Shown: one piece after another, positions 1 to 43,785 of the stretch
How the letters are laid out: each line of letters starts with the position of its first letter
How positions within the stretch are numbered: the stretch's first letter is position 1
Assembly: GCA_037892935.1 (NCBI GenBank)
Contig: JAYXKI010000018.1
Location: 1 to 64,000 of the forward strand
Reading direction: 5' to 3'
DNA length: 64,000 bases
Origin: Phlebopus portentosus
Lineage: Eukaryota; Basidiomycota; Agaricomycetes; Boletales; Boletinellaceae
Translations under genes and position numbers: made by a program
Notes under the pieces: model-generated
Databases searched by the model: none
Seen by the model: the letters and a program-made list of their open reading frames with translations, nothing else
Told to the model about the DNA's origin: nothing

Positions 1-170
1 CTTACCTTCACTGCGACATAGGTATCTACTCTTGTATTATTAGTTTGCTGAATTCTACTTACCTTCACTGCGACATAGCGTGCGTATAGCCCGGCAACTC
101 GCGTTAGCTAGTTGTTTGTTGTTGTGTTGGCTGCCTCGAGATCGACGCCCGTTAGTCTCACCGCCTAACA
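1..170 (+). repeat. Element A 5' LTR, 3' portion (R/U5)
   Basis: This is the terminal part of a family 1 LTR ending in CCTAACA at 170. It contains the two direct copies of the CTTACCTTCACTGCGACATAG motif. The start of the LTR lies to the left of the window. Confidence 0.9.
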
Positions 171-171
171 T

Positions 172-182
172 AATAGAAAGAC
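172..182 (+). promoter_or_regulatory. Self-priming primer-binding site of element A
   Basis: AATAGAAAGAC lies one base after the LTR end. It is the exact reverse complement of GTCTTTCTATT, found about 34 nt after the TATATAA box in complete family LTRs. This matches the Tf1/sushi self-priming layout. Confidence 0.6.
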
Positions 183-580
183 CTACTCTCAAACCCGTGG
201 TTTAACCACTCGTTTGTCGCTACTCTACGCAGGAGACACATCGACGGTCAACGACCGCGCCCATCCTGGATTTATCCGAGCAACCCCTATCTTGCCCATC
301 AAGGTCCGACTGACTTTGACGTGTCCCGATAGTTCCCGAAACAATCAATCAATCCTCTAATCGTGGCGCTCCGAATCACTCTTCTGTGGAACTCGCATCA
401 GATGTTCTCTTGGGTGACTCATAGAGTCCAATCATCATCGAGCATCTCGTTCATCATCTACCTCGGTGCCTTCCAACTAGTCATCAATTTCAAAGACGAG
501 CCGGTCATCCGAAGTCAGTCTCATCCGAACACCATCCCGATCCCCATTCCACCTCCGGCCTATCAAGGTGGATCTAACTG
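183..580 (+). other. Element A leader and 5' gag region, partly deleted
   Basis: This stretch follows the primer-binding site and corresponds to the leader of B and J. A lacks about 215 bp near 343-365 that B, H and J keep; they encode the ...RYQTRYQPRRRP... segment. The break is at a CGTGG microhomology. The remaining reading frame 363-581 is open (72 codons), ends at the same place in A, B and J, and may belong to an intron or a frameshift region of gag. No ATG suitable for gag is seen here. Confidence 0.6.
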
Positions 581-2019
581 ACGATCAGCGGGCGGCTCTC
601 CCGACAAACACTAGGTGGAGCACGTCGTGAGGACAGTATATCATCAAGTCGGGCGATCAAACCTTCATTGCTTGGTGGGACGAGGCTGCGAAGAAGTGGT
701 ACTCTACCAGAGGGGACAAGTCCCAATATTGGAGAGTGAAACAAGAGGGTGATGTAGACGATCCCACACCCCCTACCCCCACACGATCAACGGCTTCATT
801 ACCAGGGCCATCAACATCGACAGGTCAGACGTCAGCTCCACCCATAGCACCCTCGTTGTCTTTCACCGAACCACGAGAGCCAGCTCCGCTCGTACCAACA
901 GACGAAGAGGAGGAAGACGAAGAAGAAGAACAAGAGATGTCATTGTTGAAAGAGTCAATAACGGACCTTGCTACGGTGATCGTGCTAGCACTCCAAGCGG
1001 CAGGAGAAGGAACGAGTAAAGGATCGAAGACGAACAAGGTTCATGTTGCCAAGCCCCGAGACTTCGACGGTGAACACGGATATGTCCACTTCAAACGAGA
1101 GTTGCGCCTGTATGTTTATGCGTCGGAGTCAGAATTTAGGACAAGCAAAGCAAAGATCATGTTCGCTCTGTCGTATATGAAGAGCGGTGCTGCTGCGAGC
1201 TGGGTGGAAAGCTACACGAGTGGCGCAATTGACGAACAGGGTAGGATAGCATTCAAGGACACTTGGGATGCTTTCCTAAAGAAACTTGACACCTCGTTTG
1301 ATGATCCGGCTCGTTCCCAGAAGGCCTTCGAAAGGCTCGACGCGATGTACCAAGGGGACCTCAACGCCAACGAGTTCTTCAATAAGTTTGACATTTGTCG
1401 AGTTGATGCTGGACTGGCCACCGAGGCTCATGACGAATGGCTGATGAGTCGCTTGAAACGAGCACTAAACCCGAAGGTGGTTGAAGGTATCATGCGCCTA
1501 CCCAATGAGCTGACAACGTATGAGGAATTCAAGAAGGCTGCGGTCAAGGTCGACAGGGTCGAGCGTCAGATCAGGGATCTAATGGCCGAGCGTAGAAGGA
1601 AGATGGTTGGCTCAACAGTGATGAAACCAGCGCCACCGCCACTAAGATGTCCAGTGCCGCCTCAACAAGCGACTCGCCCTTTCATCCCTCCCACCCAAGA
1701 TCGTCGTGATGCAACTGGAGTAACATACGGAGGCCTAGGTCAGCCGATAGAGGTGATGATGAATCAGGCGCGTCGCGCGTGCGCTTGCTATAAATGTGGT
1801 CAAGTGGGCCACTACATTCGGGAGTGCCCCCGAGGCCGTGAAGTGATACGTGCAATCATTGCGGCCTTTGTTCCAGCAGACAGAAAGGCGCTCTTCGAGG
1901 AACTCGGCCAAGTGAAGGAATCCTCCTTCGAAGAGGTCGACAACATCGATGTGCGAGCAGTGCCGACTAAACTGGAAGAACTCGTGGACGGCGAGGGTTT
2001 TCCGGAAGACCAGACATAG
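581..2019 (+). pseudogene. gag: Element A gag polyprotein (CCHC nucleocapsid), with one upstream nonsense codon
   Basis: The frame is open from about 629 to 2019; from 736 it gives 427 codons. The conserved part begins with an acidic Glu/Asp run followed by MSLLKES (first in-frame ATG at 936). A capsid-like region follows, then a C-terminal zinc knuckle of the C-X2-C-X4-H-X4-C type (CYKCGQVGHYIREC) at about 1787-1830. A TGA at about 628 interrupts the upstream conserved segment where I reads CGA and B/J read Lys. The protein would coat retrotransposon RNA in cytoplasmic particles. The conserved coding upstream of the first ATG leaves the true start unresolved. Confidence 0.75.
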
Positions 2020-2063
2020 ACGTCGGAACGACTGGTCGATCACCTAAAGGATTCTTTTCGTCG

Positions 2064-2434
2064 GACTCGTTAAAATATAATCGTCCTGTTGTACAATACC
2101 AAGATGCGAATATCAGTGATGGTTTCACCCTTCGAAAACTCCTTACCGACGTAATACCTGACGAACCTGAAGCGGATGACGATGACTTCGACGTCTACAC
2201 AGATTTGTTGGTTAGAAAAGTGAATGCTCAAGCAGGCGATTCAAACGAGCTTAGTGTGGAAGAGCGGAATCAAACCGCTATAAAAGATGAGGTTGAGGCG
2301 GAAGCACCTTACTGCGAGAACATTGTTGCTCAGGCGAACGATACTAAAGCAGTATGGGATGTGGTTGGCAGATGCGCGGCTGAGGTATGGCGTGAGGGCA
2401 TAGTGGACGCAGATCAATTCGTCAGGAGGGCGGG
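2064..2434 (+). pseudogene. pol: Element A pol, N-terminal fragment, cut by insertion of B
   Basis: The frame encodes the start of the family polyprotein (motif [18 protein letters not shown]) up to the ...DADQFVRRAG... segment. It stops at the insertion point of element B. The reading continues at 20801 after the GCGGG duplication. Together with I, this copy has the YTDLLVRKV...GDSNEL variant of the spacer, whereas B, H and J have YEDL; that marks an A/I subfamily. Confidence 0.8.
2430..2434 (+). repeat. Target-site duplication of element B, left copy (GCGGG)
   Basis: GCGGG precedes the B 5' LTR and is repeated at 20801-20805 just after the B 3' LTR. Deleting the intervening DNA restores pol of element A. 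Confidence 0.95.
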
Positions 2435-2891
2435 TGTAAGGACTCGAACATTTTCTTTTATTTTCTCATATCATCTTTCGCTTTATTTTATTTCACCTTT
2501 CTTTTACATTACTAATCCTCATTTACTAATTCCGTTCTCTCCGTCGTGGCTTATTCATCCTCAGTCATCAGCCATGACTAAATCCACTCCTTCCGACCAT
2601 GACGCTCACTAATCACTCCACTCTCTTATCATGTGACTCCTTATTAGAGTAGACCTTTCCCATGCTCAAAGTCTATATAAGTAGATAGTTTGACTCTTTC
2701 GTTCCTTGTCTTTCTATTCTACTTACCTTCACTGCGACATAGGTATCTACTCTTGTATTATTAGTTTGCTGAATTCTACTTACCTTCACTGCGACATAGC
2801 GTGCGTATAGCCCGGCAACTCGCGTTAGCCAGTTGTTTGTTGTTATGTTGGCCACCTCGAGATCGACGCCCGTTAGTCTCGCCGCCTAACA
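2435..2891 (+). repeat. Element B 5' LTR (457 bp)
   Basis: Starts TGTAAGGACTCG and ends CCTAACA. It holds a TATATAA box at 2674-2680 and the predicted transcript start GTCTTTCTATT at 2708-2718. Two direct copies of CTTACCTTCACTGCGACATAG lie in R/U5. Confidence 0.95.
2674..2718 (+). promoter_or_regulatory. LTR core promoter: TATA box and predicted transcript 5' end
   Basis: TATATAA at 2674-2680 is followed 34 nt later by GTCTTTCTATT (2708-2718). The second motif is exactly complementary to the 11 nt just after the LTR (2893-2903). In Tf1-like elements the first 11 nt of the mRNA prime reverse transcription, so the start site is inferred to be at 2708. Confidence 0.55.
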
Positions 2892-2892
2892 T

Positions 2893-2903
2893 AATAGAAA
2901 GAC
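2893..2903 (+). promoter_or_regulatory. Self-priming primer-binding site of element B
   Basis: AATAGAAAGAC sits one base downstream of the 5' LTR and pairs over 11 nt with the predicted transcript start. No tRNA-type TGG site lies directly at the LTR edge. Confidence 0.6.
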
Positions 2904-3420
2904 CTACTCTCGAACCCGTGGTTAACCACTCGTTCGTCGCTACTCCACGCAGGAGACACATCGACGGTTGACGACCGCGCCCATCCCGGTGAAACTCCTG
3001 TGCACTGTCTGATAGCTGAGGAGTGTCACAGTTCTTGGGGGCTGTTCGGTAAGATTAAAACGAGTGGGAAAGAGAAGGGTGATCTTTGGGGGGAAAACTA
3101 GAGAAGGGCTGATGCGTCGATCTGGGTTCCGGAGCAGTTCCGGAAGGGATGGAGGAGAAATGGGATTGAAGGCTGCTGGATGTATGCGAGGGGGGGGGAT
3201 TGGATTAAGGGAGATAGGCGAAGAAGCAAGGCGGGAGAAGTCGAAGCAAGGGGGGATCGGCGGTGGCGGTGCGAAGGTAATCGATGTCCTCACAGGTAAT
3301 CCCTCGATGGATTCGAACCCTGAAGGCGGAAGACGATGAGACGAAGCTTAGAGAAGGACTTCCCCTGAGCGCTGACGATTCGAAGGTGATCCTTTCGAGG
3401 ATCCGACACGATATAACGGG

Positions 3421-3500
3421 TTACGACGAGTTACGACGGGTTTCGGTGGGTTACGAAGCGAAACGGAGCGATACGACGCGGAACGAAGCGATACGCAAGG
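3421..3500. repeat. Eight-unit 10-bp phased repeat in the C LTR
   Basis: Eight consecutive 10-mers share the pattern xxACGAxGxG; for example TTACGACGAG, TTACGACGGG, TTACGAAGCG, ATACGACGCG and GAACGAAGCG. The period equals one DNA helical turn, and CGA/CGG triplets recur on one face. An identical array is in the other LTR (13561-13640). Confidence 0.8.
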
Positions 3501-3713
3501 GACTCAAGTGAGACCTCGCGTAGAGGCGTAGGGAGGAGAGATGAGGGTCTCCGACTTCAACACGGGTTGAACTGATCACACTGGGCTCGTGTACGACTGC
3601 AGAGCAGGAGACTCGAGGCGTATGAGACAGAACTATCGTGTATTTGTGGGAGATAGAGTCGAGGAGAGTACAGGAAGAGTCGAATTGGTCTCGACTGTAG
3701 CTAAAGTGGGTTC

Positions 3714-3758
3714 AAGCCCGAGCTAAACTGTTTCCTGCTAAAACTCTCGGGCTAAAAC
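3714..3758. repeat. Inverted repeat (possible hairpin) in the C LTR
   Basis: AGCCCGAG and CTCGGGCT form an 8-bp stem around a loop of about 24 nt. It lies just upstream, on the + strand, of the minus-strand TATA box, so it would be within the R/U5 transcript. The same structure is in the right LTR. Confidence 0.5.
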
Positions 3759-4283
3759 TGGGCTCCTACTACAAGTTGCTCGCCTATTTATAACTTTGTC
3801 CGAACCTGAGCCATCGGAGCGTCAGGGAGCATAACGAAAGGAAATCGGAAGTGAAAATCATAAGGGAACACACGGGAACAAAGTACGAGGCGAGCATATC
3901 TGGAAGGTGGCGAGATAATGACCATAGAGCATAATACGAAATGTGAGCGCACACGGAATAATGAGCATAAGAATCATAAGGAACAAAACAAAATATGAAC
4001 GCATATGGGACTCAAAAGGGGAAAAGCCGGAGTGCGTCGCGTCGGGTCGAAACTTGGGAGGTGTCGGGGGCCGATTGCGGATCCTTCAATTTACCTCTCG
4101 TGCCTGGGTTTAGTAAGACGAGCTAGCTAAGTCAGCCTTTGTAAGTTTTCGACTGGGTGGCTCGAGCGTCCGAAGGTTCTTCCTACGCAGCGGTCGAGTG
4201 CGAGAGGCTACAGTAGTCCGTTCCACTTCGAATCGAATCGATCCGCACCGAGTTCCGCTGTTACGATGCGGATCACCGCGGAA

Positions 4284-4296
4284 CACGTGTCACGTG
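4284..4296. promoter_or_regulatory. Tandem CACGTG boxes in the C LTR
   Basis: Two palindromic CACGTG hexamers are separated by a single T. In the element's direction they fall in U3, upstream of the TATA box; on the other strand they are about 170 bp upstream of the antisense ORF. CACGTG is a typical bHLH site. They are also present at 14424-14436. Confidence 0.45.
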
Positions 4297-4466
4297 CGCG
4301 ATCTCGGACCTAGCGTGTCGATGCTTCTTACATCTCCCGGTTTCTTGAAATCGTGACTGTCCGCAGTCACACTCCCAATAGGGTTAGACTCGGCGTCTCT
4401 AGATTCTTGACGCGTAAAACGCGGTTCGCGACGCGTTCCGTTCATCTATCCTCTCTTCTCTCCGTC

Positions 4467-6387
4467 ATGTCCCAACAACAGCAACAACAACAGCGACAAC
4501 AGCAACAACCGCAACAGCAGCAACAACAGCCGCTGTTCGACGAGATCCCTGTCTCAGCGGAGGGCTTCGTGTTCAGCGATACGTGGCTTTACGGTGTCGG
4601 AAACCAGGTCCAGGTCATCGAGCGTTTGCACGAGGACGTGGATCAGAGACGGTTCGTGAGGATGACCGTTGCGCAGTCCGTTGAGAGGGCGGAGGAAATG
4701 CGTGAGATCCAGGTGCGCTTTCTTTTCTGTCTTCATCTATTCTCTTCGTTCCGTTCCGACTTCCTGAACTTCATAGACTGCGAGAAAGAGACTCGAGGAC
4801 CTTCGGCCCGAGTGGGTGCCCATCGATTTGATGTGGCCGCCGTATGCCGCGCGTTTCTGGGCGGAAAGCGTGGTTGCGCTTGCGGATCGTTGCGCAACCC
4901 TCAACATCAACTGCGACCAGCTCGATGCGCTCAAGGCTTCGTACCTCGAGGACGAAAAGCGTTCGAAGCCGGACACCGAAGTCTACGTTCAGCAATGGCG
5001 CGCGGGTTTGACCGGTCTAGAAGGGGCGATCGGTCGTCACCGCGATCTGCTACGGCCACTGGTTGGCCATTTCGACGAAAGGAAGGACGAGCTGGAGAAC
5101 ACGGTCATGAAGATCGATCTGGACCAGGTGAGTGCTCATTCTCGCTTCTTCTTCAAATCTTGCTAACTGTTGAACTTCTAGCTATGGCGGATGTTTTGGG
5201 TCGGTCGTCGTCCTCCCGGCACGGAGATTGACGACGTCTGGACCGAATTCGGGTGGCTCGCTTGGGCGGAGATCCGGGGAATCCTCCTCTCAGCGCCGCT
5301 GAAGAGTCACGTCCACGAGGCCCTGCGGTGCTGGACTGCGTATGAGGAGAAGTGCTGCCCGTGCTCGGTCAAAGCCGCAGACGCCCTCGTTGCGCTGCGT
5401 TCCGACGCGCATCTCGGTGGATCGGGCCCCTTTTCGTCGGGTATATCCGAATTGACCGAGTCTGCCCTCAGGACGCTGCTGGGTCGTCAAGACTTGAGTC
5501 AGGTGGAGCGGGAGTCCGTCATCAGCGAGCTGGAAGATCGTGCGGACCGAGTTTCGTACTTGAGCGAGCTGGAGAAGATGGCAAGCGCGGTCAGGGTTCC
5601 GTCGCCGTCTTCGGATCGCGAGAGAGATGAGAGGCCCACGAAGCGGCCTCGGATTGTCGATTATTCGAGCGACGAGGAGTCGGTAGAGGGGAACTGCAAC
5701 AACAGCAGCAGCAACATTCCTTCTGCTGCCAACGGTTTCTCTTCTGGGGGTCCGGCCGGAGATGACGACTTTGGGGCTTTTGACGAAGCGCCCCTCTTTC
5801 TTCCGGACGGTGCTGTCAGCGAGAGCAACAGCAGCAACAGCAATCCTCCGGCTGCGAGCGAGTCTCCGAGTGCAGAACGAATGGAAGAGGATGAGGGAAG
5901 CCAAGGCGATGGCGGGGACGGCAGCAGCAGTAGCAGCAGCAGCAGCAATTCGTCTGCTGGTGGCTGGGTCGTGCATGATGAGGGGTGTGAGAGGTGCGCG
6001 AGGACAGGCCGGGTCTGTGAGGGTTTCCCTGGGCAGGCCTGTGATTACTGCCGCACGAAGGCCAGGCGGCGATGCGAGCTGGCTACGCACGGGAGGGCTG
6101 CGCGTCGCCTGCGGAACGAGCAGGTGGAACGCGAGACGCGCGAAGCTCGTCAGCGCGCAACGGCGCAGGTGCTGAGGATGCCGGTTGCGCCTGTCCTCGA
6201 GGTGAGTGACATCGAGGAGTTGGTCGCCGGGACGGACGAGAGCGCCGTCCATTTCCGGATGGCGGCCTTGGAGAGGCGCGCGCGCGTGTTGTTCCGCGCT
6301 GCGGATCAACTGCGCAACCTAGCGGAGGAGATGCTGGCCGAGACCAGTGCGCTAGGAAGGGTGGTAAGGGGTGAGGAGGAAGAGTAA
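4467..6387 (+). CDS. Antisense accessory gene of element C: polyQ, Zn2Cys6-type nuclear protein, two introns
   Basis: The gene runs opposite to gag-pol, between the end of pol and the 3' LTR. Predicted exons are 4467-4712, 4777-5127 and 5182-6387. The introns are 64 and 54 bp with GT-AG ends and, in the second, a TGCTAAC branch site; splicing keeps one frame of about 600 codons. The N terminus is a glutamine run (residues about 3-23). A Trp-rich middle part carries WPPYAARFW. Next come a Ser/Asp-rich acidic stretch and a basic KRPR motif. A cysteine array spaced C-X2-C-X6-C-X7-C-X2-C-X7-C (encoded about 5991-6080) fits the fungal Zn(II)2Cys6 binuclear cluster, and a charged, coiled-coil-prone C terminus follows. 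DNA binding or transcription control is inferred from that motif. A regulator of the element, or a captured host gene, are both possible. Confidence 0.8.
4713..4776 (+). other. Predicted intron 1 of the antisense gene
   Basis: GTGCGC...TTCATAG, 64 bp. Removing it joins exon 1 (82 codons) to exon 2 in frame. Confidence 0.7.
5128..5181 (+). other. Predicted intron 2 of the antisense gene
   Basis: GTGAGT...TTCTAG, 54 bp, with a TGCTAAC branch site 13 nt before the acceptor region. Typical of short basidiomycete introns. Confidence 0.8.
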
Positions 6388-6961
6388 GGAGTAAGAGGAG
6401 TGAGGAGAGGGGGTAGAGTGCGTCAAAAACGACGCTTTTCGTCTAGTGTCCCCTCATGGGACGAATAAAAACAAAGAAAAAGAAGAAAAAGAAAAAAATA
6501 ATTTGAACTTTTGTATATATAGTTTTTGTGCGTTTTTGAATGTTATGAATTTTTGTTTGCGGTTTTGACGTTTGGGGTGAAGGTAAATGAGGCGAGGTCG
6601 AAGAATAATGGAAGAATGAGGATTGAGATATGAGAAAATGAGAGATTAGAGAAAATAAGCGGTGATTATTGAGTCGAAAGGACTGAGAGAAAAATAAGCT
6701 AGTTGCGCTGTTTTGCGCAGCGCTACGCCGGGTTGCGATTCGCAACTGAGCGCATGAAGGTGAACACGCGGTTGAACGCGTATCTCGGTTTGCGCGAACA
6801 CTTTTCCGAGGGTCTAAATGCGGTTGAGCGCGAATAATTCGAAGGAAGGAAAAATTGAGAGGAAAATCGGGAGAGGAATGAAATGAAACGAATAATCGAA
6901 GGGATCTAATAGAAGAAGAATGTCAGTGGTTTGCATGGAAGGTATCAGAACTGAATGGTGT
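6388..6961. other. Convergent 3' region between the antisense gene and pol of C
   Basis: No coding is seen. AATAAA at 6464-6469, 77 bp after the antisense stop codon and followed by an A-rich stretch, is a plausible polyadenylation signal for that gene. The transcripts of pol and of the antisense gene would overlap here. Confidence 0.5.
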
Positions 6962-9900
6962 TTATAAGTTGAGGTTTTGAGATTCCGACTGGGCGTCGGA
7001 AACGTCGTCTTCTTCTGGTTCGATTGGGGGGTTGGCGTCGTCCTCGAGTTCGTCATCTGCTGCGTTTACGAGTTTAGTAACGGGTACAGAGAGATTCGAA
7101 CGAGGAAAGTAAGGAATCAGGCGAAACGCAGCTACTCGGATCTTCGAGACTGATCCGTCGAGTTCTGCAATGACATATGAACCGGCCTTTGTTTTGCGTA
7201 CTACCACGTAGGGTCCTAGGTATCGGGGCTTCGTCTTGCGATTAAGTTCCATTTTGATGCGCGTATTTCGCAACAATACGAGTCGTCCTGGCTGGAAATC
7301 GTAGTCTTTGATTTTGGCCTTGTTGATCTCTTCGAATTGCCGCGCGTATGCATGCCGGGCATCGGAAACTAATCTGGCGATTTGATCCAGTTCCTCAGGA
7401 CGCTTCTGGAGCTGCTTCGCGCGAGTTGCGATGAGTTCCGCAGTCGGAACAGGCGTATCGACCGGGGGGGCTAAGTACGTGGCTTCGGCGAGGTCGAAAG
7501 GTAGAATAGGCTCTACTCCGTGTACCATGTAATACGGGGACATTCCGGTCGCCTTCTGGATGGTGATTCTTTCTGCCCAAAATACTGAGTAAGCTTGGTC
7601 GCTCCATCGTTTGTCATTACCGTCTACAGCCTTTATCAGGGCTTCCTGCACATCGTAGTGGCGTCTTTCTACAATTCCATTAGCGCGAGAGTTGTATGCT
7701 GAGATGCGTATGTGATTGATGTGATATCGATTCTTGAGGTAATCGAGTGCTGCGATGAACGGTTTCCCATTATCTGTTACGAGCTCGGGACAAGCGCCGT
7801 ATCTGCAAAGGAGGTCTTGGAAAATGAACTGGGCTATCGCTTTGCCGGTTTCTTCGCGCAAGAGTCGAAATTCGGGGTAACCGGATAAAGCGCATCGGGC
7901 TTGTACGATGTACCAGTATCCTCCAGACTTCGGCATTACCTTGGTGTCGATGTGTATGCACTGGAAAATCGATGGTATTGTTGGTACGACCGGGGGAATT
8001 AGAATGTTCTTCGTCTGGCGAACTTGGCACTCATGACAGGTGCGCACGTAGTATTTGACGTCTGGACCGAGGGTAGGCCACCAAAATCGTTCCAGGAGTC
8101 GAATTCGAACAGAGTATACTCCCTTGTGGCCTAGATCGTCATGCGCTTGCTTTACGAGGTTCCATCTGCGTTCCGGTTCGATTACGACCTGGTGTCGTCC
8201 GTTCCGCACCTTCTTCCACAAACGTCCGTCTCTAGCGAAGAAATTTGCCGCGTACCTGATCAGCGCTGCATAGCCACGATCGTCTAACTGATCCGGTCGC
8301 TTCTGGCCGATCAAGAAGCTCTTGACGTGATCCAAGCGAGCATCTTTCGGGTTAGCTCTCTCGGAGCTGGGAAACAAGGTCAACGCGATGTCAGTCATCT
8401 TCGGGAAGTCAGAGCTGCCGTTTCCCTTCCGGCGTTTACTGTTCGAGCCCTCGAGGTATCCTACTGATCCGAGAGTTGCTTGCGCATTTCCAGGGCCCGA
8501 TGGGAGTCGTTTCGCTTGGTTGCGCGCACGTAAGTCTGCGCAATACGTCGTAACTGGGTTTTCGATGTAGAATCCATACGTGTCGTCTATCCACTCTTCG
8601 TATCCTTTGTCCGGAGGTGGATCTTCGGGTGCCGGGGGTCGTCGAGAAAGTCCGTCGGTGCATTTGAAGTTTGCCGCCGGGATGTGGCGAATCTCGAAGT
8701 CGAATAGAAGTATCCCGGCGATCCAGCGGTTGATCGTAGCGTTTGGTTGTAAGTCCGGGTTGTTAATCATGCCTTTGATGTATGCTGCGTCCATTTCTAC
8801 GACAAGCTTGCGCACTCCGATGAGATATAGTCGCATGGCGTGTAACGTACGAAATAGTCCGTAAAGTTCGATTTTCGGTTGGGAGTATGTTGCTTGCGTG
8901 GCATTCCAGTTTATGGAACCGAAGCGATTAATCCTTCTTCGTCCATCTACGTGTTCTTGACCCAAATACCATCCTACTCCGATAATCGACGAATCCACCG
9001 CAAGTACAACTTCGAGTTCCGATTGATAGTCTATTGCGCATAGAGCTGGACACCTAATGACCGCTTCTTTCAACTCGTTCATTGATTCCTGTTCTTCGTC
9101 TGTCCAATCGAAAATGTTGTTCTTCCGAGTGAGTCGATTGAGGGGGCGTGCTATCTTGGCGAAATCCTTAATGAAAATTCGCAGGACTCCCACTGTTCCG
9201 AGGAATCCTTTGACTTCGGTTACGGATCGGCATGGCGGCCAGTCACTGACCTTCTGGACTTTCGATTCGTCTGGCTCTCGTCCATAATATGTCAGTTTGT
9301 GTCCGAGAAATACGATTGACTCAACGCCGATCTCCATTTTCTTTCCTGAGTACGTCCCTCCCACTGCCTTGACTCGCTGCAAAATTCGATTTACGTCGCA
9401 TATATGCTCGTAAATAAATCGCCTAATCCCTGGATTCTCTGGCAGGGTTTCGTAAGAGCCATCCGGGAGTTCGTAGCGCGTTTTGGGACCTAATCCGGGC
9501 GAATCGTCTGCATACGGATCGGTACAGTGCGGAATCTCGTCTTGTAGGATGAAAGCGACGTCATTGTGCATAATCTGAAGGGAATTCGTGTATCCCATCG
9601 GGAGAACCGTCATTCTGAACGTTCCCAAGGGAGTCTGAAATGTCGTGAGATCTCGAGAGCGTTCGTCTAGAACTCGCTGGTCAAAAGCCACATAGAAATC
9701 GAGGCTCGAATAACAACTTCGTCCGCCGCAACGCTCCGCAATGGTCTCTATATTCGGCGGAACGGCTGAGTCTCGGACGGAAACGCCATTCATGTCTTGC
9801 AGGTCGAGTATAAATCGAAGGGAGACTCCATCTTTCTTGACTAGGCAAAACCATCGTGATCGGTACGAGGAGTTAGACGGTTCAATGGCTCCATTCTTGA

Positions 9901-10402
9901 TTTTCTCGCGAATCAGGTTGATGGTACGCTCGAGAATACCCGGAGGAATAGGTATGTTCTTGTGTACCCACGGTACATGCGGTACCGTCGGGATGCGAAT
10001 CGGATCGAAGTATTGCGCATCGAAACTACCCCGTTCCGCTTCCGTCCACGCTAGTGCTCCTTCCTGCAGCATAAGTAGGTTAGCCACTAGCAGCCTTTCT
10101 TCGGGCCATAAGAACTGATTCTCGTCAATCCTGAGGGCTTCAAACCGCTCCTTCGTAAGTCTGCCTATGGGCGTAAACGGTTTCGGTTTCTTTGGTATTT
10201 CGGACAGTCCTTCGAGCGGGTTCGGATGCCTCCTTCGAACGATCCGAAATTCTTCTGGTAGTACCCCGGGGACGGGCCGTACTTTCTGAGCGACGCGTTT
10301 GTACATGAGTACCGCCGGGTCGTCGTCGTCCGGGGTCTCTAGAATACATGATCTATAAGGTCGATTTGAATAGTCAGTAGCGAAACGCATTGGGTCTTTC
10401 AT
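6962..10402 (-). CDS. pol: Element C pol: reverse transcriptase, RNase H, integrase (1146 aa)
   Basis: An uninterrupted frame from ATG at 10402. RT: first catalytic Asp in the YSSLDFYVAFDQ motif (about residue 235) and the YADD box (297-300). RNase H: LAVDSS (about 470), an ELYGL glutamate and a MDAAYIKG aspartate. Integrase: an HHCC zinc site (DDLGHKG...CHEC), then a D,D,E triad in HIDTK, VTDNG and GIVERRH. There is no chromodomain; the tail is acidic. The frame is -1 relative to gag, with a 125-bp gap between the gag stop and this ATG, so re-initiation or another bypass is needed. The protein would copy the RNA in particles and insert the DNA. All catalytic residues are present, so C may be autonomous. 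Confidence 0.93.
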   Translation of the reverse strand: MKDPMRFATDYSNRPYRSCILETPDDDDPAVLMYKRVAQKVRPVPGVLPEEFRIVRRRHPNPLEGLSEIPKKPKPFTPIGRLTKERFEALRIDENQFLWPEERLLVANLLMLQEGALAWTEAERGSFDAQYFDPIRIPTVPHVPWVHKNIPIPPGILERTINLIREKIKNGAIEPSNSSYRSRWFCLVKKDGVSLRFILDLQDMNGVSVRDSAVPPNIETIAERCGGRSCYSSLDFYVAFDQRVLDERSRDLTTFQTPLGTFRMTVLPMGYTNSLQIMHNDVAFILQDEIPHCTDPYADDSPGLGPKTRYELPDGSYETLPENPGIRRFIYEHICDVNRILQRVKAVGGTYSGKKMEIGVESIVFLGHKLTYYGREPDESKVQKVSDWPPCRSVTEVKGFLGTVGVLRIFIKDFAKIARPLNRLTRKNNIFDWTDEEQESMNELKEAVIRCPALCAIDYQSELEVVLAVDSSIIGVGWYLGQEHVDGRRRINRFGSINWNATQATYSQPKIELYGLFRTLHAMRLYLIGVRKLVVEMDAAYIKGMINNPDLQPNATINRWIAGILLFDFEIRHIPAANFKCTDGLSRRPPAPEDPPPDKGYEEWIDDTYGFYIENPVTTYCADLRARNQAKRLPSGPGNAQATLGSVGYLEGSNSKRRKGNGSSDFPKMTDIALTLFPSSERANPKDARLDHVKSFLIGQKRPDQLDDRGYAALIRYAANFFARDGRLWKKVRNGRHQVVIEPERRWNLVKQAHDDLGHKGVYSVRIRLLERFWWPTLGPDVKYYVRTCHECQVRQTKNILIPPVVPTIPSIFQCIHIDTKVMPKSGGYWYIVQARCALSGYPEFRLLREETGKAIAQFIFQDLLCRYGACPELVTDNGKPFIAALDYLKNRYHINHIRISAYNSRANGIVERRHYDVQEALIKAVDGNDKRWSDQAYSVFWAERITIQKATGMSPYYMVHGVEPILPFDLAEATYLAPPVDTPVPTAELIATRAKQLQKRPEELDQIARLVSDARHAYARQFEEINKAKIKDYDFQPGRLVLLRNTRIKMELNRKTKPRYLGPYVVVRKTKAGSYVIAELDGSVSKIRVAAFRLIPYFPRSNLSVPVTKLVNAADDELEDDANPPIEPEEDDVSDAQSESQNLNL

Positions 10403-10527
10403 CAGCTTCCGAAGCTGGTTACTAAATAGAGAGGTGAAAGCGTCGGAAACATCAATAGAATAGATAGAAAACGTATTGTTGAGGCTTGAACATGAATAAT
10501 CGCCTACGTCTCGCTGACGTCTTAGTA
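10403..10527 (-). other. Gag-pol spacer of element C
   Basis: Short stretch between the gag stop and the pol ATG. No clear intron or slippery heptamer is recognised. The pol frame is open for at least nine codons upstream of its ATG. Confidence 0.4.
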
Positions 10528-13131
10528 TCAGTTCCTCGACGTCTGCTGAAAACCCTGTTGCGCAACGTTGCGCAACACGTTCCGAATTCCAGTCGCGACC
10601 TTGCTATGTCGATTCCTGTCGTTGGGGTCTGATAGCGTTATATGCTGGTCTCCCGAGGTATAATCCTTGGTTTCGCATTCGGTTACTGCGAAGAAGGGTC
10701 GTCCGAGTAGCGCCTGAAACGGCGCCTGACGAACGACATGCACTTGCAGGGAAAGATCGATCCCGGCTATCGTAAACTTGGCGTTCGGGATTAGTCCTAC
10801 GGTGGCCGACTTCGCTGTGTCCGCCATCTCGATGGTCGTGCTCTGGTCCGGTGATAGGGGCACTTGAAGTTTTTCCCAAACGTCTTCCCTAATCAGACAC
10901 ACTGCTGCGCCTTGATCGAGTACGCACTCCACTTCCATCGCGTCCTCCACTACGGCTGTAATCGTACGAAGGGGGAGAGTTGCTTCCGCGGTCACTCCCG
11001 ACGTTCCGATGGACAGAATCGAGTCCTCAGGTTGTTGCGATGCGGTTCCGCACAGTTGCATGGCGTAACTCGGCGATTCGACGAGATTCACATCGGCAGC
11101 GTTATATCTCTTTGCGGTAGTGAGTTCCTTTAGTTGCTTTCGTAGTTCGGGGGCGATCGATAACAGTTCCCTTTGGCTAAGCGTAATGCTCGTGTCGAGC
11201 GTCCGAGTGAGCACGTTAGAGACAGCGTTAGAATCTTCAACGGGGACTACGTAGCGGTATTGGGGTTGGGGGTTCGAGGGTTTTCTAATATCATCCCGCT
11301 GCGGTGACAAACGTGAAACCGCCGGGGACTTAGGAATAGGGGGTGGCGACTGCTGCGCCTTCGAAGCCCCTCTTCCCGGCGGTCCCACTTTTGTCGGAAT
11401 GACTACTCCGTCGAACTTCTGCCTTTTACCAGTCGCCGCTTTCTTCTTTGCCTCGTTGAGCAAGATTTCTAAACGTTCTACTTCGTAATCGGTCTCTTCT
11501 GTCTGATCCTCGCCGATTTCCTGGAGCATAGCTGATGCTATCGGCTCGGCCGGGGTTTCCGGGTGCTCGGCGACTTCGATGATGTTGACTGGATGTGACG
11601 GGTTCGGCTTTAGCAAGTTGTCAATTCGCTCCATCAGGTTCCGGCCCGAAACCCTACTTGATACGAAGGCTCCGTTTGGCATGACTACTCGTCCGTTCGA
11701 GTCACGTAGACACTTTCCGGCCTGGATATACTCGAGTACCTTCGGGCACGACCTTATAAAGTGGCCGGGATCGCTGCAGAACGCACATCCGGGCGTGCGA
11801 GCCAATGGGGCCGGTTGCGGACCTGTTGCGATTCGAGGGCCCTGGCCTCTAGTGAGCGATTCCAGTGTTACCTGAAAACCCTTCAGCGTTTCCCAAACTT
11901 TACTCAAGTCCGTTTCTTCCTTCTTGACGGTCATTCCATGTCCTCCCGACGACGCGCTCATCGTTGCGCTCGTTCCGCCGCTCATCGGGTCGGATCCGAT
12001 CTGATCGACTGCGGATCCCGAAAGAATGTACATAGCTGCGTTTGCTACTTTCTCGATGTCGTAGGGGTCGCCCCTCTCGTGGTCCGGGTCCTTGATTTCG
12101 AGCCTTTGCAGGATATCCTTCCTAGTCTGGCCCGAAATGCCTCGAAGAAACGCGAATTTCGAGTCGTTCTCGGTAAGTTTGTTGCTGGTAACTAGATACC
12201 TGGCTCTGCGTAGGAACTCGCGATGATAAGTGCCGAATTCATCCCTGGTGTGAATACCTTTTTCGGCCCATTCGGCGATGAACTGCTCCAATTCGCCCCT
12301 AGAGTATCTCTTGCCGTCTGCCAAACTTGGATAAAGCTTCTTGACGGCCGTTTTGAAATCTCCGACGCTCGCAGGGGCGGCAGAAACTTCGGGGAGGGTC
12401 TCCCATACTTCTGCAACGTCAGTCTTCGCATAGTACAGGTACCCACGTCTGATGGTAGTCGACGCATCCCAGTTGGAATCTATTGCGATCGCATCCACGT
12501 CGTCGAAGAAGCGGAACAGTTCCTTCGGATCGGAACCGTCGAATACTGGTGCTCTCTTGTCACCTCGAAGAGGTGGTCTAACTGCAGCCATCTGGTTCGA
12601 TATTCGCTGCAACTGCTGATAATTGGTCTGAAGTTGGTTAAGGATCTGCAGGTTACTTCCCAGTCCTTGGAGGTGGTGAGCGAGAGTTAATCCGCTTGGT
12701 TGCGACTGTTGCGCAAGCGGATCGACTTGGATCGCTTGATTGGAGGTTTGAGGCTGTCTGAGCCTAGCGGGGTCTGGGTAATCGAGTCGAACAGTGATAT
12801 CCTCAGGCGACGAGGATTCTTGCTCGGAGAATTCGGTAGGTAGATCGGTTTCTTGGAAACTAAAAGGAGACGATTCGGCCGACGGCTCGAACGATGGTAG
12901 GGTACTGGACTCGGTCAGAGGTGAAGGTTGAATTACTGAAGCACTTAGCGACGATGCTGTGGTGCTTCTAGCGCTTGCCCTCTGCCTAGGTGTCCGAGGT
13001 GTGACTTGGGGTAAGGCTTGGTGAACTACGGGGATACGGGCTGATTGGCTTCGGGTAGTCCGAGTACTACCTGGAGTTTGGTTACTCGTTTTGGACGAAC
13101 AGTGAATTTCCCCCCTCGCCGGGGGCTCCAC
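10528..13131 (-). CDS. gag: Element C gag-protease (up to 867 aa)
   Basis: The frame is open from inside the primer-binding site (GTG at 13131) and even from within the LTR, but the first ATG is at 12591 (residue 181 of the longest frame). The N-terminal 180 residues are Ser/Pro/Gln-rich. The capsid-like core starts at RGDKRAPVFDGSD, a motif shared with D and E. A zinc knuckle C-X2-C-X4-H-X4-C lies at 449-462. The C-terminal part is a retropepsin-like domain with DQG at about 739-741, where DSG or DTG is usual, and a LLGRPFF motif near 807. So the protease is fused to gag, not to pol, as also in D and E. The real start is uncertain. Confidence 0.88.
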   Translation of the reverse strand: MEPPARGEIHCSSKTSNQTPGSTRTTRSQSARIPVVHQALPQVTPRTPRQRASARSTTASSLSASVIQPSPLTESSTLPSFEPSAESSPFSFQETDLPTEFSEQESSSPEDITVRLDYPDPARLRQPQTSNQAIQVDPLAQQSQPSGLTLAHHLQGLGSNLQILNQLQTNYQQLQRISNQMAAVRPPLRGDKRAPVFDGSDPKELFRFFDDVDAIAIDSNWDASTTIRRGYLYYAKTDVAEVWETLPEVSAAPASVGDFKTAVKKLYPSLADGKRYSRGELEQFIAEWAEKGIHTRDEFGTYHREFLRRARYLVTSNKLTENDSKFAFLRGISGQTRKDILQRLEIKDPDHERGDPYDIEKVANAAMYILSGSAVDQIGSDPMSGGTSATMSASSGGHGMTVKKEETDLSKVWETLKGFQVTLESLTRGQGPRIATGPQPAPLARTPGCAFCSDPGHFIRSCPKVLEYIQAGKCLRDSNGRVVMPNGAFVSSRVSGRNLMERIDNLLKPNPSHPVNIIEVAEHPETPAEPIASAMLQEIGEDQTEETDYEVERLEILLNEAKKKAATGKRQKFDGVVIPTKVGPPGRGASKAQQSPPPIPKSPAVSRLSPQRDDIRKPSNPQPQYRYVVPVEDSNAVSNVLTRTLDTSITLSQRELLSIAPELRKQLKELTTAKRYNAADVNLVESPSYAMQLCGTASQQPEDSILSIGTSGVTAEATLPLRTITAVVEDAMEVECVLDQGAAVCLIREDVWEKLQVPLSPDQSTTIEMADTAKSATVGLIPNAKFTIAGIDLSLQVHVVRQAPFQALLGRPFFAVTECETKDYTSGDQHITLSDPNDRNRHSKVATGIRNVLRNVAQQGFQQTSRN
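13113..13130 (-). promoter_or_regulatory. Primer-binding site of element C
   Basis: On the minus strand TGGAGCCCCCGGCGAGGG starts two bases after the LTR end. Elements E (TGGAGCCCACCAGCGAGGG) and D (TAGAGCCCACAGCGAGGG) have nearly the same sequence at the same place. The TGG start fits tRNA CCA pairing; the tRNA is not identified. Confidence 0.65.
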
Positions 13132-13132
13132 T

Positions 13133-14472
13133 TGAAACTCCTGTGCACTGTCTGATAGCTGAGGAGTGTCACAGTTCTTGGGGGCTGTTCGGTAAGATTA
13201 AAACGAGTGGGAAAGAGAAGGGTGATCTTTGGGGGAAAACTAGAGAAGGGCTGATGCGTCGATCTGGGTTCCGGAGCAGTTCCGGAAGGGATGGAGGAGA
13301 AATGGGATTGAAGGCTGCTGGATGTATGCGAGGGGGGGGATTGGATTAAGGGAGATAGGCGAAGAAGCAAGGCGGGAGAAGTCGAAGCAAGGGGGGATCG
13401 GCGGTGGCGGTGCGAAGGTAATCGATGTCCTCACAGGTAATCCCTCGATGGATTCGAACCCTGAAGGCGGAAGACGATGAGACGAAGCTTAGAGAAGGAC
13501 TTCCCTGAGCGCTGACGATTCGAAGGTGATCCTTTCGAGGATCCGACACGATATAACGGGTTACGACGAGTTACGACGGGTTTCGGTGGGTTACGAAGCG
13601 AAACGGAGCGATACGACGCGGAACGAAGCGATACGCAAGGGACTCAAGTGAGACCTCGCGTAGAGGCGTAGGGAGGAGAGATGAGGGTCTCCGACTTCAA
13701 CACGGGTTGAACTGATCACACTGGGCTCGTGTACGACTGCAGAGCAGGAGACTCGAGGCGTATGAGACAGAACTATCGTGTATTTGTGGGAGATAGAGTC
13801 GAGGAGAGTACAGGAAGAGTCGAATTGGTCTCGACTGTAGCTAAAGTGGGTTCAAGCCCGAGCTAAACTGTTTCCTGCTAAAACTCTCGGGCTAAAACTG
13901 GGCTCCTACTACAAGTTGCTCGCCTATTTATAACTTTGTCCGAACCTGAGCCATCGGAGCGTCAGGGAGCATAACGAAAGGAAATCGGAAGTGAAAATCA
14001 TAAGGGAACACACGGGAACAAAGTACGAGGCGAGCATATCTGGAAGGTGGCGAGATAATGACCATAGAGCATAATACGAAATGTGAGCGCACACGGAATA
14101 ATGAGCATAAGAATCATAAGGAACAAAACAAAATATGAACGCATATGGGACTCAAAAGGGGAAAAGCCGGAGTGCGTCGCGTCGGGTCGAAACTTGGGAG
14201 GTGTCGGGGGCCGATTGCGGATCCTTCAATTTACCTCTCGTGCCTGGGTTTAGTAAGACGAGCTAGCTAAGTCAGCCTTTGTAAGTTTTCGACTGGGTGG
14301 CTCGAGCGTCCGAAGGTTCTTCCTACGCAGCGGTCGAGTGCGAGAGGCTACAGTAGTCCGTTCTACTTCGAATCGAATCGATCCGCACCGAGTTCCGCTG
14401 TTACGATGCGGATCACCGCGGAACACGTGTCACGTGCGCGATCTCGGACCTAGCGTGTCGATGCTTCTTACA
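13133..14472 (-). repeat. Element C LTR, right copy (5' LTR of C)
   Basis: Near-identical to 2990-4332, with one C/T difference (near 4223/14364) and three homopolymer-length differences. The minus-strand TATA box is at about 13925-13932, with the 10-bp repeat array at 13561-13640 and the paired CACGTG at 14424-14436. Confidence 0.95.
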
Positions 14473-24423: not shown

Positions 24424-26276
24424 TGTAGACTATCAGACTCTCCTATATAGGGACAAAGGCGGCGGCGGCAGCATTCGACCACAGGGAGGCGATGCCAAAG
24501 GTGTCGAGAGGAAAAAGGGGAGGTCCTACCAGACCTACAGACTACCTACAGGCTTTCAGAAGCGACACTCAGCTCAGATGCACAAGGATCTGGCCGTTAG
24601 GCAGATCCGCCGCGCCTTTGAATAACTCGCCGCGGCGATCCGGGCCTCGACGGCTGTATAGGGATCGCCGAGTCCGACTGAACCGGCGAAGGGGTCGCAG
24701 CGGCAGACTGCGTGCAGTGGACTGGGTGCGGCGCCGGCGGAGGTTCGCACCAGCGCAATTCCGCCTGGTGGTCAGGGAGATGACGTCGGAACGACCCAGA
24801 GAAGATGCGGGAGAGGGAGCGTCGACACCACTTGAAAGGGGAGTAGTGTCGGCGGTGGAACGACGTGGAGGCGGCAGAGGCGGCGAGAAGTGGGAGACTG
24901 GATTCAGTCGAAAAGGGGTGCCGGCGCCGACGGTAGCGGCGAACACAAGAAGAGTGACAGCTGCGTCGAGACATCGAGGAAGTATAACAGATGCCTAGAA
25001 GAGTGACGGCTGCGTCGAGGCGTTGAGGAAGAATCACAAACGATCTGAACCGAGCGGCGGCGGCGAAAGACAAAAGGGGCCTCAGGCGCAGGGAGAAATC
25101 GAAGACCGCGGGATTGATTACTAGAGGAGTGACGGCTGCGTCGGGACGTGGAGGAGGAATCCCGAATGCTCAGGACCGAGCGGCGGCGGAGGCTAGAGAG
25201 AGAGGGACGGCGATGCAGATATAAGTGGGAAGTCCTCGGAGCGATTACTAGACGAGTGACAGCTGCGCAGAAGGGAGATGACCAGGGCGGCGAATGAGCC
25301 CAGCGGCTTCTATCCTGTGAGATCGGGGCCGACGCCGTCAGGACAGGATCGGCGAGGGCACGTGACCGGGAGTTCGCCCGATCGGGCTGTCTGGTTCTCT
25401 GTCTATACTGGTTTCTTGAAGGCGGCTTCTTTACTTGTGGTTGGTCTCTGGTAACTGCGTTCTAGAGTGTATATCTGCTGCTTTTTAGGATAGATACATG
25501 CTCTCTATATATACTATGAGTCCTTGATAAGAAATATCACTTAAAGCGGCGGGCGGCGAGGCGTGACAGGCACGCCGCGACGGCGGGGGCCGCCGCCGAG
25601 ATGCACCGCCAAGCCACCAAGACCTAGGGGCGCCCCAATCGGAACGGCGGAGTGCTGGTACGTCGTGTCGAACGTCGGGGCCGTTCGGATCGGTCAGGGC
25701 GCGCTCTATATGGTTCTGAAATGCCAAGGGTTCGAATAAAACTAAAAGGGGGAATATACGGACGGCCGCCGGGCGCGCTACCACGCTCGGCGTACAATGT
25801 GGGATGATAAGAATATGAAACAATCAACGAAATGGACCTGAGATTGGCTATCGTTCACCCAGCCGGCGCGGCGGCGGGCATACACATCCGCGATGGCGCG
25901 ATATACATCCGCCGCAGCGTGTCCAGCCGCCGTGCAAGCATTTCCGAAGCCCAGAGTCACCGGATTCGGCGGAACCATTCTTGAGAGAGGCTGGAGAAGG
26001 GGAACTAGGATTTGGTCGAAGGGGGGACAAGGTGATCATAAGATAGGAGTGGAGGCGTCGCCGCCGGTTCGTATGGACGGCGGCGGCGGCGGTGTGGGTG
26101 CTGTTCCTAGGCCGCCGAAGGTCCGGCGGCCGCTGAGCAGGCTGTATTATGGGTAACGGCGGCGAAGGCTGGTTTGCTGACAATAGTACGCGGGGTGTCC
26201 TGGGTATGGCATAGGGGAGTACCGCCCTTACAGGCCTGTGCCGCTGGACCGGTACAGGTTAGTGCGGCGCACTACA
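24424..26276 (-). repeat. Element D LTR, left copy (3' LTR of D)
   Basis: A GC-rich LTR of 1853 bp. In the element's direction it begins TGTAGTGCGCCGCAC, and a minus-strand TATA-like run (TATATATAG) lies near 25505-25515. No convincing coding inside; several open frames are by-products of GC richness. Confidence 0.92.
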
Positions 26277-27703: not shown

Positions 27704-28395
27704 TGTCTAGGGGGGCGCTGTTTTTCTGTCCCGGCGCCGCACTGAATCATTGGGATCGACATGGTTTCGTTCGTATCGGGATGAGTAAGGTATAGCGTCT
27801 GTTCGCCGTCGGCCTCGTCTATGACTTGCGCCCTGGTGTGTACGAAAAACGGCCAGCCTAATAGTAACTGAAAGGGGGCCTTTTCGACGACCTGGACTTG
27901 GACAACAATAGAGAAGGTGCCTATGGTGAGTCTGACACGAGGGATGAGTCCCACCGAGCGTGAGGTTTGTCTGTTGGCGGTTTCTACTGTGATTGCTTGG
28001 CTCATTATCGTCGGGGAGCCGAGGTCCTTCCATACCTCTTTTGGCATGGCGATAAATGTCGACCCCGAGTTGAGCAAAGCCTTTACTTCGAATTTATCAT
28101 TGAGCCAGACCTCGATTTCGCGGAGGGGAATGTTCGGCGGGGCGACGGATGGATCTTCATCGCCGAAGTTAACTGGCGAGGTGGGCCTCGGGATTGAGGC
28201 GTACATTGCCATCTCGTGATCAGGATTTTCCCTAATTAGTTCTCGGTGCCCCGTGACGAATTCTTTACACTTCTTTCTGATTTCGGGAGAGGCGGCGAGC
28301 AGGCTTCGGATTGGCAGGGTGACTTCCGAGTCCAGAATCTTGTCGAAAACGTTTGATACCGCGGCGTCATCATATGCTGGTACGGTGGTTCGGTA
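27700..28395 (-). pseudogene. Element D protease domain, in frame with gag after a stop codon
   Basis: The frame continues from gag past a TAA at 28396 with residues homologous to C (VSNVFDKILDSEVTLPIRSL), through ATG 28212, to a TGA at 27700. The retropepsin motif reads LLNSGST: the catalytic Asp is replaced by Asn (AAC for GAC), a change at a CpG. LLGWPFF matches the LLGRPFF motif of C and E. The protease is therefore predicted to be inactive. Confidence 0.8.
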
Positions 28396-43763: not shown

Positions 43764-43766
43764 TCT

Positions 43767-43785
43767 TGGAGCCCACCAGCGAGGG
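43767..43785 (+). promoter_or_regulatory. Primer-binding site of element E
   Basis: TGGAGCCCACCAGCGAGGG begins three bases after the LTR and matches the sites of C and D. Confidence 0.65.

What the first reader, a model, noticed from the sequence alone, without database searches (positions are those of the whole stretch)
4467..6387. A Ty3/gypsy element carries an antisense, spliced Zn2Cys6 polyQ gene
Seen: an intact frame of about 600 codons in three exons, opposite to gag-pol, inside the LTRs of a very young element. Its cysteines are spaced C-X2-C-X6-C-X7-C-X2-C-X7-C. It also has a glutamine run, a KRPR basic motif, an acidic Ser-rich region and its own AATAAA. Known: that spacing is the fungal Zn(II)2Cys6 DNA-binding cluster; standard gypsy elements encode only gag and pol. 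Inference: the gene is either an element-encoded regulator, for example of LTR transcription or silencing, or a captured host gene now dispersed by the element.
Basis: partly seen in the sequence, partly recalled or inferred. Interest (0 to 1): 0.88.

Follow-up and report, generated by a model that had tools for sequence, protein, structure and literature searches.

The report
Jumping gene carries reversed regulator gene
A family of fungal jumping genes carries, on its opposite strand, a split gene for a probable DNA-binding protein, and two related families in the same genome carry a matching gene in the same place, so this looks like a long-kept part of the jumping gene and not a stray host gene.

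Summary
Between pol and the 3' LTR of a young Ty3/gypsy element (LTRs 99.7% identical), on the opposite strand, lies an intact three-exon gene for a 600-aa protein with a C-X2-C-X6-C-X7-C-X2-C-X7-C cluster. It is not peculiar to this copy. In the same genome (probably Sanghuangporus) families B (pol 71% identical) and C (reverse transcriptase 58%) carry a relative in the same antisense place; the gene models read have phase-0 introns and a C-terminal six-cysteine cluster. A match lies antisense downstream of 23 of 25 A, 47 of 55 B and 22 of 23 C pol rows. Changes shared between copies favour synonymous sites (A, P=0.015; B, 0 of 2,000 simulations); copy-private changes look neutral, so selection acts on the transposing lineage. 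Best reading: an element-encoded nuclear DNA-binding regulator of the element's own transcription. Candidate sites, bound by nothing yet shown: 10-bp-phased CGNAAC arrays in A and B LTRs, and a palindrome near the start codon. Recent host-gene capture is unlikely. Antisense extra genes in gypsy elements are a known kind (Grande, Retand, Boty); introns plus a Zn2Cys6-like cluster in three families make a new variant. Pfam Zn_clus does not match. Expression and function are untested.

The parts
4467..6387 (+). Antisense gene, three exons (4467-4712, 4777-5127, 5182-6387 with stop), 600 aa
4713..4776 (+). Intron 1, 64 nt, GTGCGC..CATAG, phase 0
5128..5181 (+). Intron 2, 54 nt, GTGAGT..CTAG, phase 0, CTAAC branch-like motif (motif recalled)
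4473..4529 (+). Glutamine run (CAA/CAG), residues 3-21; one edge of internal deletions seen in other copies
5641..5652 (+). KRPR basic motif (candidate nuclear localisation signal)
5986..6075 (+). Six-cysteine cluster C-x2-C-x6-C-x7-C-x2-C-x7-C, Zn2Cys6-like
   Evidence: Pfam PF00172 not matched
6076..6384 (+). Region after the cluster, predicted as long helices (candidate coiled coil)
   Evidence: single-sequence model, mean pLDDT 71, pTM 0.38
6464..6469 (+). AATAAA after the antisense gene
4333..4466 (+). 134-bp leader between 3' LTR and ATG: purine tract on the sense strand, palindrome, CT-rich stretch; presumed promoter/5'UTR
4353..4370 (.). Palindrome GTGACTGTCCGCAGTCAC; family B has GTGACCGTCCGCGGTCAC; also an RNA hairpin beside the purine tract
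2990..4332 (-). 3' LTR of the element
3416..3498 (.). 10-bp-phased array of CGNAAC-type units in the LTR (candidate binding-site array)
13133..14472 (-). 5' LTR of the element (same array at about 13556-13638)
6962..10603 (-). pol frame (RT, RNase H, integrase zinc-binding domain)
   Evidence: RVT_1 scores just below its cut-off
10528..13197 (-). gag-protease frame (DUF4100, aspartyl protease; zinc knuckle only below cut-off)

Best explanation
The gene is a permanent accessory gene of this Ty3/gypsy lineage. SHOWN: it lies antisense downstream of pol in three element families (inside the LTRs in A and B; LTR limits not determined in C), its gene models have phase-0 introns, it ends in a six-cysteine cluster followed in A by a predicted helical region, and it is under purifying selection at the level of the transposing lineage (A and B; not tested in C). 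INFERRED: it is transcribed from its own promoter in the roughly 130-bp leader beside the 3' LTR. Its introns survive retrotransposition because they are antisense in the genomic RNA. The protein enters the nucleus (KRPR/KRAKR motifs), dimerises through the C-terminal helices and binds element DNA through the zinc cluster. There it tunes LTR transcription and perhaps its own promoter, acting in trans on all copies, including copies whose own gene is broken. Candidate sites are the 10-bp-phased CGNAAC arrays in the A and B LTRs and the leader palindrome. Whether it activates or represses is not known; I lean to autorepression/tuning because the palindrome sits at its own 5' end.
For: A match on the opposite strand downstream of pol: 23 of 25 long A pol copies (18 with full exon 3, 5 partial), 47 of all 55 B rows and 22 of all 23 C rows. 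Gene models: A 3 exons, B 3 exons, 723-731 aa, C 5 exons, 478 aa, one copy read. C-terminal homology A-B 30% over 119 aa, E=8e-11; A-C E=2e-4 and B-C E=5e-4 as single comparisons. Full frame in 13 of 21 A copies (window plus the 20 best matches) and in 4 of 7 fully covered B copies. Context-matched selection: A shared sites 32 S: 30 N: 1 stop against 23.1 S expected, P=0.015, private sites as expected (57 S against 56.7); pol tail shared sites 16 S against 9.4, P=0.006; B shared sites 31 S: 20 N: 2 stops against 18.0 S expected, 0 of 2,000 simulations. Database proteins from three Sanghuangporus species are homologous, and S. weigelae P0002 shows the same exon joins as B. Ten-bp phasing: 6 motif pairs each in A and B LTRs, against at most 1 (A) and 0 (B) in 200 random sequences, and 0 in 49.5 kb of the rest of the window. 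Palindrome: all 63 exact genome sites lie at 5' ends of this gene, 62 at 108-141 bp from an ATG and one at a deletion derivative.
Against: No RNA or protein evidence. Within A the cluster and C-terminus alone show no purifying selection (shared 8 N: 3 S), and exon 3 alone is not significant (15 S against 13.3, P=0.34), no better than its +1-frame control (15 S against 11.8, P=0.16); the A signal comes from exons 1-2. PF00172 is not matched and the residues equivalent to Gal4 K17/K18 are T-G (A) and R-G (B, C), so CGG recognition cannot be assumed. The array motif was chosen after seeing the arrays; one 10-bp pair also occurs in the B gene. Neither array nor palindrome was found in the C stretch examined, and the array is not more conserved than the rest of the LTR after insertion. 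CGGAAC is frequent all over the A element, so composition may contribute. Copies with a deleted gene also moved, so the gene is not needed in cis. N-terminal halves of A and B are not detectably homologous. Other database gene models differ at the 5' end: P0001 and P0003 skip part of exon 1, P0005 and P0006 start inside exon 2.
Confidence: 0.5

Rival explanations
1. Nuclear accessory factor for the integration complex: the zinc cluster and helices bind element cDNA, integrase or chromatin and help import or target-site choice, with no role in transcription.
For: NLS-like motifs and a cluster plus predicted helices fit a tether; nuclear localisation is reported for Grande GENE23, and an accessory role in retrotransposition has been proposed (read). 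It would act in trans, which fits mobile deletion derivatives.
Against: Phased arrays in the LTRs and the leader palindrome would be unexplained.
Confidence: 0.18
2. Counter-defence: the protein binds nucleic acid or host silencing factors and protects the element from RNA silencing or heterochromatin, which overlapping sense/antisense transcripts would provoke.
For: The gene lies inside the stretch that the sense genomic RNA must cover; the unalignable N-terminal halves of A and B would fit an arms race.
Against: Between Sanghuangporus species the cluster and helices are the most conserved parts (S. baumii against B: 30/31 and 90/101, exon 2 79/125), which fits DNA binding better. No known silencing-suppressor family appeared among the Pfam matches.
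Confidence: 0.13
3. Antisense RNA, not protein, is what matters: the transcript regulates sense RNA and the frame is incidental.
For: Antisense RNA regulation is discussed for other elements.
Against: Selection for synonymous change in the spliced frame, intact frames with in-frame length variation in B, cysteines kept across families.
Confidence: 0.06
4. A host gene captured recently by one element and now dispersed as a passenger.
For: Host loci L063 (C3) and L068 (C19) encode a similar cysteine cluster, so the domain type exists in the host.
Against: Three families with pol 71% (B) and RT 58% (C) identical carry it in the same place; in the matches seen only the cluster region resembles the host genes.
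Confidence: 0.03

Closest known systems
[quoted passage not shown]
   Same: Position, orientation, presence in most copies, suspected nuclear or DNA-binding role (PMC7264820, parts 1 and 2 of 3 read; PMC11963269, passages).
   Different: No TRP28 or other Pfam match above cut-off here; multi-exon with phase-0 introns; six-cysteine cluster; fungal host.
brtn, antisense gene of Boty elements of Botrytis cinerea
   Same: Antisense extra gene in a fungal gypsy element (title in a reference list and a passage of PMC8365987; named in PMC7264820).
Zn(II)2Cys6 binuclear cluster regulators (Gal4, Pho7, RhaR)
   Same: Cysteine spacing, proline between cysteines 3 and 4 (A, B and C), following helices (predicted for A only). 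Reference features from passages of PMC5559640 and PMC4245848.
   Different: Cluster lies towards the C-terminus, PF00172 does not match, Lys17/Lys18 equivalents absent; encoded by a retroelement.
HBZ of HTLV-1
   Same: Antisense-encoded nuclear protein of a retrovirus, mentioned for comparison in PMC11963269 (passage).
   Different: Analogy only; no homology was tested or expected.

Membership tests
Antisense additional ORF (aORF-3R) | Lies between pol and 3' LTR, inside the LTRs | tested here: met
   A; B: LTR copies on both sides of pol and gene in one element. For C the LTR limits were not determined.
Antisense additional ORF (aORF-3R) | Opposite strand to gag-pol | tested here: met
   Opposite-strand match for 23/25 A, 47/55 B, 22/23 C pol rows; same-strand match within 5 kb for 0, 2 and 0
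Antisense additional ORF (aORF-3R) | Present in most copies and conserved like other element proteins | tested here: met
   conservation not tested in C
Antisense additional ORF (aORF-3R) | Transcribed from its own promoter | not testable with these tools
   No RNA data held.
Zn(II)2Cys6 cluster | Cysteine spacing C-x2-C-x6-C-x5-12-C-x2-C-x6-8-C (range recalled) | tested here: met
   Variable loops 7 and 7 residues in A, 7 and 6 in B, 8 and 6 in C
Zn(II)2Cys6 cluster | Match to Pfam PF00172 | tested here: not met
   No match at E up to 10 for A or B; none of the 60 places in the genome scan is an A, B or C locus
Zn(II)2Cys6 cluster | Lysines between cysteines 2 and 3 that contact CGG (Gal4 K17/K18) | tested here: not met
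   A: T-G, B: R-G, C: R-G, read from the sequences with the position in Gal4 recalled; role described in PMC4245848 (passage)
Zn(II)2Cys6 cluster | Linker and coiled-coil dimerisation helix after the cluster | tested here: inconclusive
   Helices predicted for A, but most of the cluster itself is below pLDDT 60
Zn(II)2Cys6 cluster | Binds two zinc ions and DNA | not testable with these tools
   Needs protein
Retand TRP28 antisense proteins | TRP28 domain (PF04195) | tested here: not met
   Not among Pfam matches of A or B at E up to 10; C not scanned
Boty brtn | Sequence homology to BRTN | not tested
   Sequence not held; the protein searches listed only Sanghuangporus proteins, but only about 8,000 candidates were scored in each
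Ty3/gypsy LTR element | LTRs; protease, RT, RNase H, integrase in this order | tested here: met
   RVT_1 is just below its cut-off (27.2 against 29.6 bits)

The most novel reading that the evidence does not exclude
A lineage of fungal gypsy retrotransposons has kept, since before its families A, B and C split, its own antisense, intron-bearing zinc-cluster transcription factor, with matching operator arrays in the LTRs of at least two families: a self-contained regulatory circuit like the antisense regulators of complex retroviruses, evolved independently.
Probability: 0.35. Interest if true: 0.82.

Novelty: new variant of a known kind. Interest (0 to 1): 0.64.

Why it matters
The review read says that the function of antisense genes of plant gypsy elements is not known. 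Here one has a recognisable DNA-binding-type cluster, intact copies, three divergent families to compare and concrete candidate sites in the element's own DNA, so the question can be tested in one-hybrid, DNA-binding and reporter assays. It would also show that introns, kept because they are antisense in the genomic RNA, can be a stable part of a retrotransposon gene.

Tried and rejected
Naive pairwise dN/dS against the window (0 to 0.48) was set aside as overstated, because CpG context makes synonymous sites more mutable; the context-matched test replaced it. Wrong-frame controls on exon 3 gave no significant synonymous excess, but neither did the coding frame of exon 3 alone. Host capture was tested by searching the genome with A, B and a host cluster: no full-length host orthologue among the listed matches. 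A-B homology of N-terminal halves: none by BLASTP or profile comparison (one search was set up poorly). PDB sequence searches of the cluster region found nothing useful. Rfam found nothing in the element. The bacterial promoter scan was not used. The 10-bp array was sought in family C and not found there. A 127-aa search of plasmid records found nothing.

Rows dropped: L027 and L028 from the selection test (old, badly aligned); L017 also from the pol tail; L024 and L027 from the LTR comparison; B copy L061 is partial. One search failed. One search stopped on a division by zero and one search repeated it; one search also stopped early, so only its printed rows were used and the planned check of cysteines in old subfamilies was not run. 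In some searches only about 8,000 candidates were scored, so distant relatives in other fungi may be missed. Genome searches score only the best candidates (105 of 499), so copy numbers are lower bounds. 'No earlier report of a zinc-cluster or intron-bearing antisense retrotransposon gene' rests only, seen as lists of the top 10-20 papers from an open-access library.

Full report
What is there. The window holds a Ty3/gypsy element on the - strand: LTRs 13133-14472 and 2990-4332, differing by one substitution and three single-base gaps, with CCGG on both flanks. gag-protease and pol frames carry the expected domains, RVT_1 just under its cut-off and the zinc knuckle below it. Between the end of pol (6962) and the 3' LTR, on the + strand, is a gene at 4467-6387. 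Removing two GT..AG introns of 64 and 54 nt gives an open 600-aa frame; both introns are phase 0. The protein has a glutamine run, a 320-aa middle part without Pfam match, a KRPR motif, an acidic/Ser-rich linker, the six-cysteine cluster at 468-497 and a C-terminal part predicted to be helical. The cluster pattern occurs once in the six frames of the window and never in five first-order random sequences.

Host. The genome is held as G000, 38.4 Mb in 23 contigs. The protein database returns only Sanghuangporus proteins (S. sanghuang, S. weigelae, S. baumii), so the host is probably a Sanghuangporus (Hymenochaetales). That is inference. In these searches only about 8,000 candidates each were scored.

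Family A. A DNA search with exon 3 listed 41 places, the window's included. I fetched the 20 best others with flanks. In 13 of these 21 copies the whole spliced frame is intact; 6 have a frameshift or stop; 2 are old and badly aligned. Both introns keep GT..AG in 20 of 21. Of 25 pol copies of at least 3.5 kb, 18 have a full-length exon 3 match, 5 have a C-terminal part and 2 have none; the 23 lie on the opposite strand 559-607 bp beyond pol, and no pol row has a same-strand match within 5 kb. Copies L051, L052, L053, L054 and L057 have internal deletions between the glutamine-run repeats and the Asn/Ser repeats; L051, L052 and L057 have nearly the same breakpoints although they differ in sequence. 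Elements without a complete gene have therefore probably moved, so the product is either helpful in trans or dispensable.

Families B and C. A protein search found distant matches in long open frames. These belong to family B, whose pol is 71% identical. B has the gene in the same place with three exons, two phase-0 introns, 723-731 aa, a glutamine run, an acidic linker and CDQCQKRGRDCVGLPQRTCAPCLKQAKGC. The C-terminal parts of A and B are 30% identical over 119 aa, E=8e-11; the N-terminal halves do not align. The leader between LTR edge and ATG is 134 bp in A and about 128 bp in B. B-type proteins are listed for three Sanghuangporus species. The S. weigelae model has the same exon joins as mine and the S. 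baumii model has one extra residue at the first join; S. sanghuang P0003 and the A-type P0001 skip part of exon 1, and P0005 and P0006 start inside exon 2. In S. baumii the cluster (30/31) and the following helices (90/101) are more conserved against B than exon 2 (79/125). A third family C, with reverse transcriptase 58% identical, came from the pol search. The one copy read carries an antisense gene of five exons with four phase-0 introns, 478 aa, ending in a cluster CERCIGRGEMCTRRLPALLCQACRVSHHRC and a short tail. Search matches to other C copies break at the same exon limits. An opposite-strand match lies within 5 kb downstream in 47 of 55 B and 22 of 23 C pol rows; a same-strand match in 2 and 0. 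For C the LTR limits were not determined and selection was not tested.

Selection. In 19 A sequences (window and L009-L026), changes seen in more than one copy are 32 synonymous, 30 replacement and 1 stop, against 23.1 synonymous expected when the same changes are moved to sites of the same base and CpG context (P=0.015). Changes private to one copy fit neutrality (57 against 56.7). The pol tail shows the same split (shared 16 S against 9.4, P=0.006). In 8 B sequences, one of them partial, shared changes are 31 S: 20 N: 2 stops against 18.0 S expected, 0 of 2,000 simulations, and private ones are near neutral (59 against 53.4). This is what a gene needed by the transposing lineage, not by the host, should look like. 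Against this: in A the signal sits in exons 1 and 2; exon 3 alone is not significant (P=0.34) and is no better than its +1-frame control (P=0.16), and cluster plus C-terminus show nothing (8 N: 3 S). In B that part does (6 S: 4 N, P=0.035). Old A subfamilies give dN/dS of 0.28 to 0.49 against the window without context correction. For splicing, shared changes in exon 2 favour synonymous sites only in the spliced frame (P=0.034).

Candidate sites. Two cis features are shared by A and B. First, the LTRs hold arrays of CGNAAC-type units at 10-bp steps: 6 pairs at spacing 10 in each LTR, at most 1 (A) and 0 (B) in 200 random sequences; none in A gag-pol, in two other LTRs or in 49.5 kb of the rest of the window, one in the B gene. 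The motif was defined after seeing the arrays. The array is not more conserved than the rest of the LTR after insertion. It was not found in the C stretch read. CGGAAC is common through the whole A element. Second, the leader holds the palindrome GTGACTG-TCCG-CAGTCAC in A and GTGACCG-TCCG-CGGTCAC in B. All 63 exact genome sites lie at 5' ends of this gene, 62 at 108-141 bp from an ATG and one at a deletion derivative. An 18-base string is expected to be rare anyway, and both differences could be CpG changes. It also folds as an RNA hairpin beside the purine tract. Neither feature is shown to be bound by anything.

Interpretation. The gene is a long-standing accessory gene of this element lineage. 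The cluster, basic motifs and predicted helices suggest a nuclear DNA-binding protein, and the phased arrays suggest that its target is the LTR. I give this reading 0.5. Recent host capture is unlikely; host loci L063 and L068 encode similar clusters, so the domain may have come from the host long ago.

Compared with the known. [quoted passage not shown] Retand elements encode antisense proteins with a predicted DNA-binding TRP28 domain (PMC11963269, passages). Boty's gene brtn was seen only as a title and a passage. The cluster has the Zn2Cys6 spacing and proline but not the Pfam match or the CGG-contacting lysines, so I call it Zn2Cys6-like and do not file it in that family. My paper searches listed no antisense retrotransposon gene with a zinc cluster or introns; I saw the top 10-20 rows of each, from open-access text only.

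Changes made on re-checking: the B count is now 47 of all 55 rows (it was 37 of the best 40), the B leader is 128 bp, and the differing database gene models and the failing exon-3 control are stated.

Noticed in passing
window 41802-49099: A gag-protease-only element with LTRs 99.85% identical (41802-43763 and 47138-49099) and no pol frame of 300 aa or more in between; looks like a young non-autonomous element.
   Followed up: no
window 24424-32800: Another LTR-like pair (91.5% identical) around a single gag-like frame (28396-30570, - strand), possibly an older relative of the gag-only type.
   Followed up: no
L063 (C3:2957500-2961500) and L068 (C19:107000-109200): Apparent host genes with a cluster of the same spacing type (CSRCARAGIACAGKEGRACFTCRAHRQGC; CTRCADAGVDC..CQRCARWRRGC), a possible old source of the element's cluster.
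   Followed up: partly
L051, L052, L053, L054, L057: Internal deletions between the CAR-repeat (glutamine run) and AAC/AGC-repeat tracts of the antisense gene; L051, L052 and L057 have nearly the same breakpoints, so a deletion derivative has probably kept moving.
   Followed up: partly
L018-L022 and L025, stretch matching window 6391-6961: A 15-bp gap in the stretch between the two genes is shared by six copies and marks a subgroup of family A.
   Followed up: no
L069:3160-3508: Family C has a 145-bp tandem repeat (2.4 copies) upstream of the antisense gene; the 10-bp array of A and B was not found in this stretch.
   Followed up: no
L050 (C2:1786624-1790454): The N-terminal half of the antisense gene is not recognisable here while the C-terminal part stays open.
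   Followed up: no
window 1-2989 and 14473-64000: Many nested copies of a second gypsy-like family fill the window (chromodomain-type by eye, not tested); the element of interest appears to be inserted in one of them.
   Followed up: no
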